Source: Prasinococcaceae sp. CCMP 1430 | Taxonomy: Eukaryota; Prasinodermophyta; Palmophyllophyceae; Prasinococcales; Prasinococcaceae | Length of the DNA: 45,531 nucleotides | NCBI GenBank assembly: GCA_013416795.1 | Contig: RQSC01001202.1 | Coordinates: 77,501 to 123,031 of the forward strand | Direction: 5' to 3' | In this document: piece after piece, positions 40,730 through 45,531 of the stretch | Numbering within the stretch: position 1 is the first letter of the stretch | Layout of the letters: every line of letters begins with the position of its first letter | The notes under the pieces: generated by a model | What the model saw: only the letters and a program-made list of their open reading frames with translations | Databases searched by the model: none | Told to the model about the DNA's origin: nothing | Made by a program: the position numbers and the translations under genes

Positions 40730-41178
40730 TTCCATTATCTCCTTCTTTCAAACAAAGCAAAAAAAAAGCCCTTCGCGGCGGCGGCGCCTGTCGTCGCGAT
40801 GCGGGCAATTTTTCGCGCGGTGTCACATTTTGCGCACACGTCCGTGCGTGCGTGCGCCCCCCCCCCCCCTTTCTCCCCCTCGCGGGCAGAGTGTGTGTGC
40901 CGGCACTGACCATCGACGCGGGCGTGCTGTGTGCTCTGCGCGCCTGGAGCGTGGCGCCGCCGCCACGCCTGCTGCTTCCGCGCCTGCCGCCCGCGGACGT
41001 CCCGGCGGCCGCGGTGCACAGGCGCGTGCGCGCGCACGCGGAGCGCGTGCGCTGCGGCGTGAAGCGCGCCTGCGGTGGCCGCGGTGCCACTCTTCGCCTC
41101 CGTACCGCACGAGGGAGGAAGGCAGGGGCATAGGGCGCGCTGTGCACCTGCAGTCTGCGCCACACACAGAGTGAGACG
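40730..41178. other. Intergenic, upstream of the WW-domain gene
   Basis: No gene seen. It has an A-run (40760-40768), a C-run (40857-40869) and GC-rich filler between two plus-strand genes. It should hold the 3' UTR of the glycoside hydrolase and the promoter of the WW gene. Confidence 0.55.
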
Positions 41179-41913
41179 ATGGTCGCCCCATTGCCCGAAG
41201 GCTGGAAGGCGTACCGCGACCCAGCAACGAACGCCATTTATTACGCAGCGCCGGACGGAAGGACGCAATGGCAGGCGCCGCCGCCTCCCGCGCCCACTCA
41301 GGAAATGCCCTCTCTGGGGCAGCTTGCGCAGCAATTAGACGCACTAGGCAGGCAGGTACAAGCACTCTGCAGCCAGGTAGAAGGACTGCTGCAAAGGGTG
41401 CGATTACAGTACGAGAAGACGCAAGCGACTACGCAAGAAGGACTAAGCAAGCAGGTCGCAAGGATTCGCGCACCAGACCACGCTGAAGGGGGGCGCAGCG
41501 ATGCTGGACCCTCTAAGCCCGTCAAGCGTGAGCGCTCGGAGGATGAGCCTCGCTCACCGGACCACGCCGAAGGGGGGCGCAGCGATGCTGGACCCTCCGA
41601 GCCCGTCAAGCGTGAGCGCCGTGAGGATGAGCCTCGCTCACCGGACAACGCCGAAGGGGGGCGCAGCGATGCTGGACCCTCCAAGCCCGTCAAGCGTGAG
41701 CGCTCTCAGGATGAGCCTCGCGCACCAGAACACCAGCATCGCGCACAAGGGGGTGCCCAGTGTGAGCGCCGCGATGGAGAGCCCTCTGAGCCCATCGGCG
41801 AGTCAGTCGAGGCCAGCGACATGAGGCTGGCGCGCGTGATGCATGATAAGGATATCCACGCGGATCTCCGTCAAGAGAGGAAGCGCCCGCGTCGATACGG
41901 TTACGACGAGTAA
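41179..41913 (+). CDS. WW-domain protein with 28-residue repeats
   Basis: A single exon of 244 residues. Residues 3-35 form a WW domain: LPEGWKAYRDPATNAIYY and then GRTQWQAPPPP, with both signature Trp and the closing Pro, a module that binds Pro-rich or phospho-Ser/Thr-Pro ligands. Residues about 45-95 are heptad-like (QLAQQLDALGRQVQALCSQVEGLLQRV), a likely coiled coil. Then come three copies of a 28-residue acidic-basic repeat (pattern AEGGRSDAGPS-PVKRER) and a conserved-looking end RLARVMHDKDIH...RQERKRPRRYGYDE with a bipartite nuclear signal. This layout suggests a nuclear splicing or transcription adaptor, as with PQBP1 and similar WW proteins, but no orthology can be claimed. Stop TAA at 41911-41913, 250 bp from the convergent Argonaute stop. 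Confidence 0.82.
   Translation: MVAPLPEGWKAYRDPATNAIYYAAPDGRTQWQAPPPPAPTQEMPSLGQLAQQLDALGRQVQALCSQVEGLLQRVRLQYEKTQATTQEGLSKQVARIRAPDHAEGGRSDAGPSKPVKRERSEDEPRSPDHAEGGRSDAGPSEPVKRERREDEPRSPDNAEGGRSDAGPSKPVKRERSQDEPRAPEHQHRAQGGAQCERRDGEPSEPIGESVEASDMRLARVMHDKDIHADLRQERKRPRRYGYDE
41476..41727 (+). repeat. Three 84-bp in-frame tandem repeats in the WW gene
   Basis: Copies start at 41476, 41560 and 41644. Each encodes 28 residues with gcagcgatgctggacc and gtcaagcgtgagcgc in common. Near-identity of copies points to recent expansion; a fourth, decayed unit may follow (cgcacaagggggtgcccag). Confidence 0.95.
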
Positions 41914-42163: not shown

Positions 42164-45100
42164 TCACCAGTACATGGTGTTGATGATGCGTTCGTTGGGG
42201 CTCGGAAGCTGTCCGGTAGTCCCGACGCCACCCTCTCGATAGCTCGAGGTCCGCTCTGCGACCTGTGCGCAGTAGTACAGCGGTACCGGCGAGCCGACCA
42301 CCTTCCCACAGAACGCGTAGCCCGTGTGGAGCGCGAGCATGAGGCGCTGCAATGCTTCATCCTCCGCTCGATCGATGTCGGAGTGCAGCGGGATGACCTG
42401 CTCCAGGCGAGGCACGCCGAGGACCCCCTTGTGTGCGGCGAGGTAGAACGCGGACATGCGATCGCAGAGGTCATTGATCTCGCCGCTTGAGATGTCGGTG
42501 ATGACCGTGCCGGGGAGCGGGTTCCCGGTCCTTGAGTCCTTCGCGTCGTGGCTCTCCGGCCACGCGTGCATGCCCGTTTTCTGCACGACGTTGTACGAAA
42601 GCTTCGGCTTGCCTCCAAGCATCTGCTTGACATGTCCTTTCTCGAGCACGCGCTGGAGGCCTTCTTCGAGCTCGCGCGTCTTTGCTGCCTCGAGGGATCC
42701 TGCAGCGACGCCGTTCCTTAGGACGACGATCAGGTCAAGCTTCGCGCCATTGTTGCGGACGCTCCACGCCTCGAGACTGTCCTCGAAGAGCCGGCACGCG
42801 AGCTCAGGCTCAAGAAGCATCCCATTACTCGCGGCGTCTTCGTCGCCGCTCCTAAACTCGGCGCAACGGGCGACGTACTGCTGCGCGCCCTCGACGAGCG
42901 TGCACACCGTCGCAATGGCGGGCGAAGCGACCTCCGCGATGGGACGGTACACGTCAACTCCCATGACAGCGACCGTGTTCATGCCATGTGGAAGCGGCAT
43001 GCTGGCGGCGTAGTTGAGCCCGCCCATCTTGGCGTTGATCTTCTGGGCCATGTTTGCCTGCTCCGAGTTGCGAAACTTCTGGAGCGTGGCCTGGCGGATC
43101 TTGACCAGCCTGAGCCCGCGCTGATCAGCGCAGAAGTTCATGTTGAACGTCCAGCCATCGTGCGAAGACATGCCTGCCATGTTGCCGGTCCCAGACGTTG
43201 GCTTTTCGCCGGGAATCACGCAGATCGCCAGGTCCAGCGGCCTGCCGAGAGCTCTCTCTGCTTGGTCGCAGAAGGCATCGACCCAGCTCCCTCCGTCCAG
43301 CGGGCTCTGCACCACGTGGACGTGGAGGGCCCTCGCGCCACACCTGTACTGCAGGCGCGAGTCCATGCGGATCCCTTTGGATACGCAGGTGCTCACGAGC
43401 TGGGTCAGGCAGCTCTCTGCCTGCCCTTCCAAATCACGACGCGGCTGGTCCGTGACCATGCACAACGCGAACGTGAAGTCGTCCGCGCCGCGCACAAAGC
43501 CCTGGCGAAGGTTGCTCATGAAGTCAAAGCCGCCCTGGGCGACCAGTCCGCGTGGCCCGTCGCGCTGGATCTCTGCACGTGCTCCGCCCTGGTTGAGCTC
43601 CAGCCTAGGGAGCTCCAGGCGCTTCGCCGTCGCCCCGTGCATGGCTGACGAGCACTCAATGCCGAAAGCTTTCATGAGCGGGTTGTTGTTGACGATCTCG
43701 CTCACGAGCCTTTCCAGGGTGCTCTTCCGGCCGGTGGGGTTGCTGTAGGTGCCGCGCCTATCGAGCATCTTGCTGAGTGCCGTCTGTGGGGGCTGGCCCT
43801 TGGCCCGCTGCCCGGCGACGATCCTGACGTGCTCGAGCGGAAAGGCCGTTGTCGACCCCGGCCTTGCGCGGATGAGCGGAAGACCAGGATACTCCAGCGA
43901 CGCCCCCTTCGATTCGAAGTGGCTCGCCACGGAGATGCTGGTGTCGCCCTTCTTGAACATGTACTCACGCGCCGACTCCTCCGTCAGGACGGAGCCGGGG
44001 CCTGCGGTTGGCCGCTCCGTACCCCCATCGCGCTCGTCAGGCCGTGTGGAGGCCTCGTCGCGCTCGATGCGGGCCTTGATGAGCATTGGCTTTCCAGGAC
44101 CGCCGAGACCAGGGATGCCTTCAACCCACATCCCGTCGAGGCCGCCCCACGATGAACCTCGACCTGACTTGTCCCCGAAGAGGAAGATCTCGCGGGTCCT
44201 CGCGTCGAAGGTCGCATGACCATCCGAGCGAAAGCCACGCGTTGCGTACCCTCCGAGGAGGGACGCACCGAAGACGATTTCCGGCAGCTCTTTGTCCTTT
44301 GCGACCTGTGTCACGCCGATTGCGGCGGACACGAACAGATCCTTGCCGCAACTGCGTGTTGCCGCCTTGACGCCGACGAGCACGACACGATTGTCGTCCT
44401 GGTCGAATGGCTCGCCCTTAAGCTTGCTCATTGGGCAGAGGACGCCCTTCTTCTCGTCAGCCAGCTGGCCGGACTTGAACGCCAGGTCCACCACCGCCTC
44501 GACGGCGCGATCGTCGCGCGCAGAGGTCTTGGTAGGGATGACAGTGGGCTTCCAAACCGTGATCTGGAAGCGCCACGCCCTGTCGCGCGGGTGTTCCAGC
44601 AGCCTGGGTTTCCAGGGGCGCTTCGGGTCCGTGACGGCCAGTGGGCCATCCTGGAAGAAGCTGCTCGGCAGCTCCGTGGGCCTTTCCAAAATGGAGCGCA
44701 GCGTGGGGTTGTGGTGTGGCGACGGGTGCGCGCGCCGTCGAGTGTCAGCCTTCGGCGCCTGCGCGGGAGCTACGACGGGGGTGCTACGCAACGCGCACGC
44801 ACGTGTAGAGCGTCCCAGAAGGAGCTCCATCGTAGATGAAGGGCGTGTCCAGCATGCCCTTCTGCTCGAACATGCGAGCGATGAGCTTGCGGGTCAGCTC
44901 GCCCCCCTTCATCAGAGGGACGGCTTCGCCGCCGCTAAGCTTCGCCAATCGCACGTGGCATGCGTGCCACTCTTCCTTGGTGATGGTCACCCCAAACACG
45001 TTCACCTTGGCGGTGAACGGAGTGCCTGGGGTGACCATCGTGCCCGCCCCTGACGACGGCCTCCCCGGTCCTGGGCCGCCACCGCCCCCCGCTCCAACAG

Positions 45101-45531
45101 GGCGCGGCGTGCCGCACCTGAAGCAGAACTGCTTGGAGGCGAACACGTTGGCCCCGCACCCTGGGCAGGTCCAGTCGCCAGGCCGGCCTGTGCGCGCGAG
45201 CACGCGCCGCAGGGGCGCGCGGGCGCAGGCGAGGGCGGCCGCGCACGCGCGCGGGCGCGCGCGCAAGCGACGCATTTGTTGAAAGTTAGTGCCATGTTCT
45301 AAACCCTATGTAACATCTATTGAGACCTAAAAACTGGACTCCATCGCTCTCACCTCCACCTGCCGTGGGACGCGCGTAGCCGCCGTAGCCGTACCCCTCG
45401 CCGCGACCGTCGCGGTCGCGGCGGGGGGCATACCCGTCGCGGTCGCCGTAGCTGCCGCCGCGGTCGCTGTAGCCGCTGCCGCTGCGGTCGCCGTAGCCGC
45501 TGCCGCCGCGGTCGCCGTAGCCGCCGCCGCG
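42164..45531 (-). CDS. Argonaute with RGG-rich and RanBP2-type zinc-finger N-terminus (5' partial)
   Basis: Three visible exons: complement of 45354 to the window edge, 44803-45187 and 42164-44660; introns 45188-45353 (GTGAGA donor) and 44661-44802 (GTGCGT donor) both restore phase. The first exon is a Gly/Tyr/Asp/Arg repeat (GGSGYGDR units). Exon 2 opens with a RanBP2 zinc finger, W-T-C-x2-C-x10-C-x2-C (GDWTCPGCG...CFRCGTPRP). Then come the Argonaute N domain (TAKVNVFGVTITKEEW; SGTLYT joined to FFQDGPLAVTD), PAZ (LEYPGLPLIRARPG, FPLEHVRIVAGQRAKG), MID (LAICVIPGEKP; KINAKMGGLNYA) and PIWI (AVMGVDVYRP; VLRNGVAAG; GTVITDISSG; FYLAAHKGVLGVPR; PVPLYYCAQVAE), ending INTMYW like the usual TMYFA. 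It binds small guide RNAs for silencing. Of the slicer residues the first Asp (GVDV) is kept, RDGV is RNGV (codon 42713-42715), and the YYAH His is Ala; slicing is doubtful. Link of exon 1 is by phase and composition. Confidence 0.9.

What the first reader, a model, noticed from the sequence alone, without database searches (positions are those of the whole stretch)
42164..45531. Argonaute fused to an RGG/GYG region and a RanBP2 zinc finger, with a degraded slicer site
The PAZ-MID-PIWI part is unmistakable, and the zinc finger is in the same exon and frame as the Argonaute N domain (GTPRP... to TAKVNVFGV), so that fusion does not depend on splicing. RanBP2 fingers usually bind single-stranded RNA or ubiquitin, and I know of no standard Argonaute carrying one. 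The PIWI core has Asn for the second catalytic Asp and Ala for the catalytic His. That suggests a guide-directed binder that adds its own RNA contact rather than a slicer.
Basis: partly seen in the sequence, partly recalled or inferred. Interest (0 to 1): 0.85.

Follow-up and report, generated by a model that had tools for sequence, protein, structure and literature searches.

The report
Zinc-finger Argonaute lacking slicer residues
What looks like a small green alga carries an Argonaute whose cutting site is mutated and which has gained an RNA-binding-type front end (Gly/Arg-rich stretch plus RanBP2 zinc finger), apparently copied from another gene of the same genome.

Summary
On the minus strand at 42164-45531 lies an Argonaute (PIWI well over Pfam's cut-off, PAZ just below it) with a RanBP2 finger, over cut-off, in the same open frame as its N domain. 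The RGG/GYG stretch joins the finger only through a predicted intron, and its 5' side runs into N. The slicer site is degenerate (D, D/E, N, A for D, E, D, H), likewise in a 98%-identical metagenomic relative. It is the only PIWI match found in a 24.5 Mb genome that has chlorophyll a/b-type light-harvesting proteins. New here: the finger is a paralogue of those of an endogenous glycine-rich two-finger protein (28 of 34 residues; 75-79% DNA identity), so the front end was probably captured within the genome. One RdRP locus was found, in a helicase-PHD-RdRP open frame, and no RNase III domain was detected. RGG tails and a slicer-dead single Argonaute (Toxoplasma) are known; two paper searches listed no RanBP2-finger Argonaute. 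Most likely: a guide-directed binder tethered to RNA, not a slicer. Guide loading, RNA binding by the finger, splicing and absence of Dicer are inferred, not shown.

The parts
45354..45531 (-). RGG/GYG/GYSDR-rich exon (59 codons plus 1 base), incomplete at its 5' end, where the contig reads N
   Evidence: open frame 45286-45531; N beyond
45188..45353 (-). predicted intron 1, GTGAGA...GCACAG, 166 nt; first 85 nt 41% GC, the rest 88% GC, in a 68% GC window
   Evidence: 10 of 50 GT-AG pairs join the frames without a stop, so frame alone is weak evidence
45099..45185 (-). RanBP2-type C4 zinc finger RPGDWTCPGCGANVFASKQFCFRCGTPRP
   Evidence: (31.6 bits, cut-off 27)
44803..45098 (-). glycine-rich linker and first part of the Argonaute N domain, same open frame as the finger
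44682..44802 (-). predicted intron 2 (acceptor 44682; 44661 also keeps the frame)
   Evidence: the metagenomic relative differs at 4 of 39 intron-read residues against 18 of 838 exon residues
42164..44681 (-). exon 3: rest of N, L1, PAZ, L2, MID, PIWI and stop codon
43796..43987 (-). PAZ match (partial, below the curated cut-off)
42248..43102 (-). PIWI domain
42953..42955 (-). codon of D576 (hAGO2 D597), kept
42836..42841 (-). codons of E614-D615 at the glutamate-finger position (hAGO2 E637), ambiguous
42713..42715 (-). codon of N656 in place of catalytic Asp (hAGO2 D669)
42266..42268 (-). codon of A805 in place of catalytic His (hAGO2 H807)

Best explanation
This is the only Argonaute gene detected in a compact, probably green-algal genome. 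Its product is a guide-binding, non-slicing Argonaute with an N-terminal tether: a disordered RGG/GYG segment followed by one RanBP2 zinc finger, probably acquired by duplication of part of an endogenous glycine-rich two-finger RNA-binding-protein gene. Proposed working, in steps: (1) small RNAs loaded in MID/PIWI/PAZ direct it to complementary transcripts [inferred]; (2) it cannot cut them [strongly indicated by N656 and A805]; (3) the RGG segment and finger add sequence-poor contacts, perhaps to G-rich single-stranded RNA, or contacts to methyl-arginine readers, lengthening its stay on the transcript [inferred from families]; (4) silencing follows by recruitment, either translational or on nascent transcripts at chromatin, with the helicase-PHD-RdRP protein as a possible partner [speculative].
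For: Finger and N domain in one open frame with domain scores over cut-off. Only 1 PIWI match in the genome search. N and A at catalytic positions in the HMMER alignments to human AGO2/AGO4 and in two MAFFT alignments, the same in the 98%-identical relative P0001. Exon 3 differs from P0001 at 18 of 838 residues against 4 of 39 in intron 2 read in that frame (Fisher p 0.014), which suggests that the exon is under constraint. The paralogous fingers on C21 and C78 match at 28/34, 26/34 and 28/34 residues and at 75-79% in DNA, and in those frames too a glycine-rich stretch directly precedes RPGDW, which independently favours the spliced RGG-finger joint. Toxoplasma Tg-AGO: single, slicer residues missing, RGG tail needed for polysome association (PMC2877743 passages).
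Against: No transcript or small-RNA data. The start codon lies in unread sequence. The 5'-phosphate pocket is only partly kept: K566 and K570 kept, hAGO2 R792->F, and the Y529/K533 region reads F and N in a weak part of the alignment (pocket residues recalled except Y529, seen). PAZ scores below cut-off, and no MID, L1 or N-domain Pfam model matched exon 3 up to E 1. The finger lacks several RNA contacts: against RBM5 N194->V and R198->K (sequence, contacts); against ZRANB2 finger 2 N76->A, R81->S, R82->K, N86->F (contacts named; the ZRANB2 finger-2 sequence used for this mapping is recalled). RBM5's Phe195, Phe202 and Arg203 are kept. A window of 838 residues that stays open is less telling at 68% GC.
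Confidence: 0.6

Rival explanations
1. Dicer-independent pathway: the RdRP makes short antisense RNAs directly and this slicer-dead Argonaute carries them, as nematode WAGOs carry 22G RNAs with 5' triphosphates.
For: One RdRP locus with an intact DFDGD motif (motif recalled), in one long open frame with helicase and PHD domains. No RNase III match with two Pfam models, each of which rang in 8 of 14 control genomes. None of six one-mismatch hits to an RNase III signature pattern looked like RNase III when I read the frames (by eye, no profile run). WAGOs lack the tetrad and many lack Y529 (PMC4245922 passages); here the Y529 position reads F and hAGO2 R792 reads F.
Against: The RNase III searches are six-frame and would miss a domain split by introns; the controls that rang are all bacteria; the assembly has N gaps. 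PAZ and Dicer_dimer searches rang nowhere and say nothing. No small-RNA data.
Confidence: 0.18
2. The RGG stretch belongs to another gene and the Argonaute starts at an ATG just upstream of the finger (45275-45273, in the finger's frame) or between finger and N domain; only the finger, or neither, is part of the protein.
For: The RGG frame has its own stop at 45286-45288. ATG codons exist upstream of the finger and between finger and N domain (TMVTPG). 10 of 50 possible GT-AG pairs join the frames.
Against: The chosen pair GTGAGA/GCACAG looks best of those ten by splice-site consensus (recalled); the 85 nt after the donor are 41% GC, unlike coding sequence here; the C21 paralogue has glycine-rich sequence directly before the same finger. 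No stop between finger and N domain.
Confidence: 0.2
3. The finger is a protein-binding (for example ubiquitin or Ran type) module that recruits partners and does not touch RNA.
For: RanBP2 fingers can bind ubiquitin; the RNA-binding consensus Asn is Val here, and the R19/R20 positions read Ser/Lys (consensus and R19/R20 from PMC6384913 passages; a non-RNA-binding finger there has Lys/Ser).
Against: Ubiquitin-type fingers carry Thr-Phe after the second Cys (recalled); here it is Gly-Ala. The best solved matches are RBM10, RBM5 and ZNF265/ZRANB2. The genomic paralogue is an RGG/GYG protein, a usual RNA-binder layout.
Confidence: 0.2

Closest known systems
Toxoplasma gondii Tg-AGO (PMC2877743, passages)
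   Same: Only Argonaute of its organism, slicer residues missing, RGG-rich N terminus
   Different: No zinc finger mentioned in the passages seen; has a Dicer partner; keeps 5'-phosphate pocket residues Y, K, Q, K
Chlamydomonas Cr-AGO2/AGO3 and other GR-N Argonautes (PMC6668577, passages)
   Different: Catalytic tetrad DEDD kept in Cr-AGO2/3; three Argonautes; no zinc finger mentioned in the passages seen
Nematode WAGO Argonautes (PMC4245922, passages)
   Same: Catalytic tetrad absent, RdRP present, Y529 position altered
   Different: Nematode-specific clade; no RGG-finger front end known to me
FUS/EWS/TAF15 and plant RanBP2-finger RNA-binding proteins (recalled)
   Same: RGG/GY-rich low-complexity segment next to a RanBP2 finger
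   Different: No PIWI/PAZ; FET proteins also have an RRM
Endogenous two-finger glycine-rich protein on C21 of the same genome
   Same: Finger 28 of 34 residues identical, 75-78% DNA identity, glycine-rich sequence around it
   Different: 200-residue frame with two fingers and no Argonaute domains

Membership tests
Eukaryotic Argonaute | PIWI domain over the Pfam cut-off | tested here: met
   72.6 bits, cut-off 28.9; solved relatives by sequence are AGO1-4, plant AGO10 and QDE-2
Eukaryotic Argonaute | PAZ domain | tested here: inconclusive
   24.2 bits, cut-off 28.8; aligned to AGO4 298-417 and AGO2 305-418
Eukaryotic Argonaute | 5'-phosphate pocket residues | tested here: inconclusive
   K566 and K570 kept; R792->F; Y529/K533 positions F/N in a weakly aligned stretch
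Slicing Argonaute | DEDH/DEDD tetrad | tested here: not met
   D, D/E, N, A
RanBP2-type zinc finger | Pfam Zn_ribbon_RanBP over cut-off, four Cys and WxC | tested here: met
   31.6 bits, cut-off 27
RNA-binding RanBP2 fingers | Aromatic residue at position 17 | tested here: met
   Phe at the RBM5 F195 position (criterion from PMC6384913)
RNA-binding RanBP2 fingers | W-x-C-x2-4-C-x3-N-x6-C | tested here: not met
   C-G-A-N-V: Val where Asn is expected, Asn one place earlier (consensus)
WAGO-like RdRP/Argonaute pathway | Tetrad absent together with an RdRP | tested here: met
WAGO-like RdRP/Argonaute pathway | 5'-triphosphate, Dicer-independent guides | not testable with these tools
   needs small-RNA sequencing; RNase III absence only suggestive

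The most novel reading that the evidence does not exclude
A Dicer-less, RdRP-driven silencing system in a green picoalga: a helicase-PHD-RdRP fusion makes guides directly, possibly with 5' triphosphate, and a slicer-dead Argonaute with a captured RGG-RanBP2 module holds them on nascent or G-rich transcripts to silence at chromatin.
Probability: 0.13. Interest if true: 0.85.

Novelty: new variant of a known kind. Interest (0 to 1): 0.6.

Why it matters
Several compact algal genomes appear to have lost RNAi genes (Medakamo hakoo, Ostreococcus tauri, Cyanidioschyzon merolae; PMC9871001 passage). An alga that keeps one Argonaute but gives up slicing, and adds an RNA-binding-type front end of traceable origin, would show another path: RNAi reduced to guided binding. 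It also makes a natural test of whether an Argonaute can be re-aimed by a captured RNA-binding module.

Tried and rejected
Structure prediction of exon 3 with three sequences gave mean pLDDT 30.4 and was not used. A second prediction, of finger plus N part without an alignment, gave mean pLDDT 50.6: the finger is confident (first three blocks of ten residues 80, 90, 87), the N part is not; no fold search was run on either. Three protein searches found only P0001 (98%), a fungal Argonaute P0002 and a metagenomic Argonaute P0004. Searches scored only the 7996 and 7993 candidates sharing most words, so they cannot show that finger-Argonaute fusions are absent elsewhere. PAZ and Dicer_dimer genome searches rang nowhere, not even on this gene's own PAZ, and are uninformative.

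Pattern search for the RNase III signature, one mismatch allowed, six hits, all six read by eye, no profile run: L035 lies antisense to an aspartokinase-like frame, L039 antisense to what I read as plastid rpoC1, L034, L036 and L037 (identical to each other) and L038 show no RNase III context. Searches had read the wrong strand or frame. Organism: 22 chlorophyll a/b-binding matches, and the one tested (L014) has chlorophyll a/b proteins as its best solved relatives; that points to the green lineage. Prasinoderma coloniale (25.3 Mb, 69.8% GC; PMC7455551 passages) is similar in size and GC, but identity was not established and its assembly is described as 22 chromosomes, not 145 contigs. That paper tentatively places the gain of Dicer after the split of its lineage.

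Full report
What is there. The window is G000:C31:77501-123031 of a 24.5 Mb assembly in 145 contigs. The minus-strand gene reads, 5' to 3': an RGG/GYG-rich exon that enters from sequence reading N; a predicted 166-nt intron; an exon with a RanBP2 finger, a glycine-rich linker and the first part of the Argonaute N domain in one open frame; a predicted intron of about 121 nt; and a long exon ending at 42164. Joined in a script these give 1026 residues without an internal stop. PIWI and RanBP2 finger pass Pfam's cut-offs; PAZ does not quite.

Splicing. Frame compatibility alone is weak: 10 of 50 GT-AG pairs join RGG to finger and 13 of 25 join the N-domain exon to exon 3 without a stop. Better support: for intron 1, a GTGAGA donor, a CAG acceptor and a 41% GC stretch of 85 nt after the donor, although the rest of the intron is 88% GC, plus the fact that the paralogous frames have glycine-rich sequence directly before the same finger. 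For intron 2, the metagenomic relative P0001, whose predicted protein reads through it, differs at 4 of 39 intron-read residues but at only 18 of 838 exon-3 residues (Fisher p 0.014). The acceptor of intron 2 may be 44682 or 44661.

Slicer site. HMMER alignments to solved human Argonautes and a MAFFT alignment with two other Argonautes put Asp at the first position, Asn at the third and Ala at the fourth; the second is unsettled (Asp with a neighbouring Glu, a Leu in the HMMER alignment to AGO2). The relative P0001 agrees at all four. Loss of the third and fourth residues should abolish metal-dependent cutting (established knowledge of the RNase H fold). The guide pocket is mixed: two lysines kept, Arg792 replaced by Phe, and the Tyr529 region poorly aligned (residue roles recalled, Tyr529 also).

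The finger. It is one of 16 RanBP2 matches found in the genome. I compared it by residue with 8 of the other 15: the two fingers of a glycine-rich 200-residue frame on C21 and the one on C78 match at 28, 26 and 28 of 34; the RBM5-like protein on C31 at 13 of 33; four fingers of the C123 protein at 14 of 32, 18 of 33, 20 of 33 and 16 of 31. A DNA search of the genome with the finger stretch found, besides itself, only those C21 and C78 places, at 75-79% identity. So the front end is most simply explained as a partial copy of an endogenous gene placed before an Argonaute. RBM5's Phe195, Phe202 and Arg203 are kept, but Asn194 and Arg198 are replaced by Val and Lys, and a published consensus Asn is missing. 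RNA binding is plausible, not shown.

Surroundings in the genome. The PIWI search found one match. The RdRP search found one locus, in a 2183-residue open frame whose pieces match DEAD and Helicase_C and PHD and RdRP. Two RNase III models found nothing while ringing in 8 of 14 control genomes each, all bacterial, and six one-mismatch hits to an RNase III signature pattern did not read as RNase III by eye. This is compatible with, but does not prove, a Dicer-less system: gaps, introns and divergence could hide one.

Known or new. GR-rich tails are widespread outside animals (PMC6668577, abstract and passages). A single slicer-dead RGG Argonaute is known (PMC2877743, abstract and passages). Paper searches for Argonaute with RanBP2 finger gave 4 papers (all listed) and 7 papers (6 listed), none of which by title or start of abstract describes such a fusion; I did not open them. 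I therefore rate it a new variant of a known kind. Subscription papers are largely outside the library, and two of the three protein searches were capped, so rarity is not measured.

Verdict. The addition made here is the probable origin of that front end and the genomic setting that makes a minimal, possibly RdRP-driven, silencing system worth testing.

Noticed in passing
L028:1931-7000 and L033:2-1582 (G000 C79, 308430-314981): The one RdRP locus found lies in a single 2183-residue open frame with DEAD/Helicase_C domains and a PHD finger upstream; an RdRP in frame with a helicase and a chromatin-reader domain.
   Followed up: partly
L022:594-1196 (G000 C21) and L021:563-1354 (C78): Glycine-rich protein with two nearly identical RanBP2 fingers, and a single-finger piece on another contig whose 34-residue finger stretch is the same as the first of them.
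   Followed up: partly
L024:465-2297 (G000 C31:160 kb) and C71:304 kb: An RBM5/10-like protein (RanBP2 finger, RRM, OCRE); a finger with the same score and frame length is found on two contigs, which suggests duplicated or haplotypic contigs in the assembly.
   Followed up: no
L023:1398-3800 (G000 C123): A protein with seven RanBP2 matches and arginine/serine/glycine-rich linkers.
   Followed up: no
window 41134-41913 (+): Gene convergent with the Argonaute: weak WW-domain match (20.8 bits, cut-off 26.9) followed by repeated KRERSEDEPRSPDHAEGGRSDAGPSEPV-like units.
   Followed up: no
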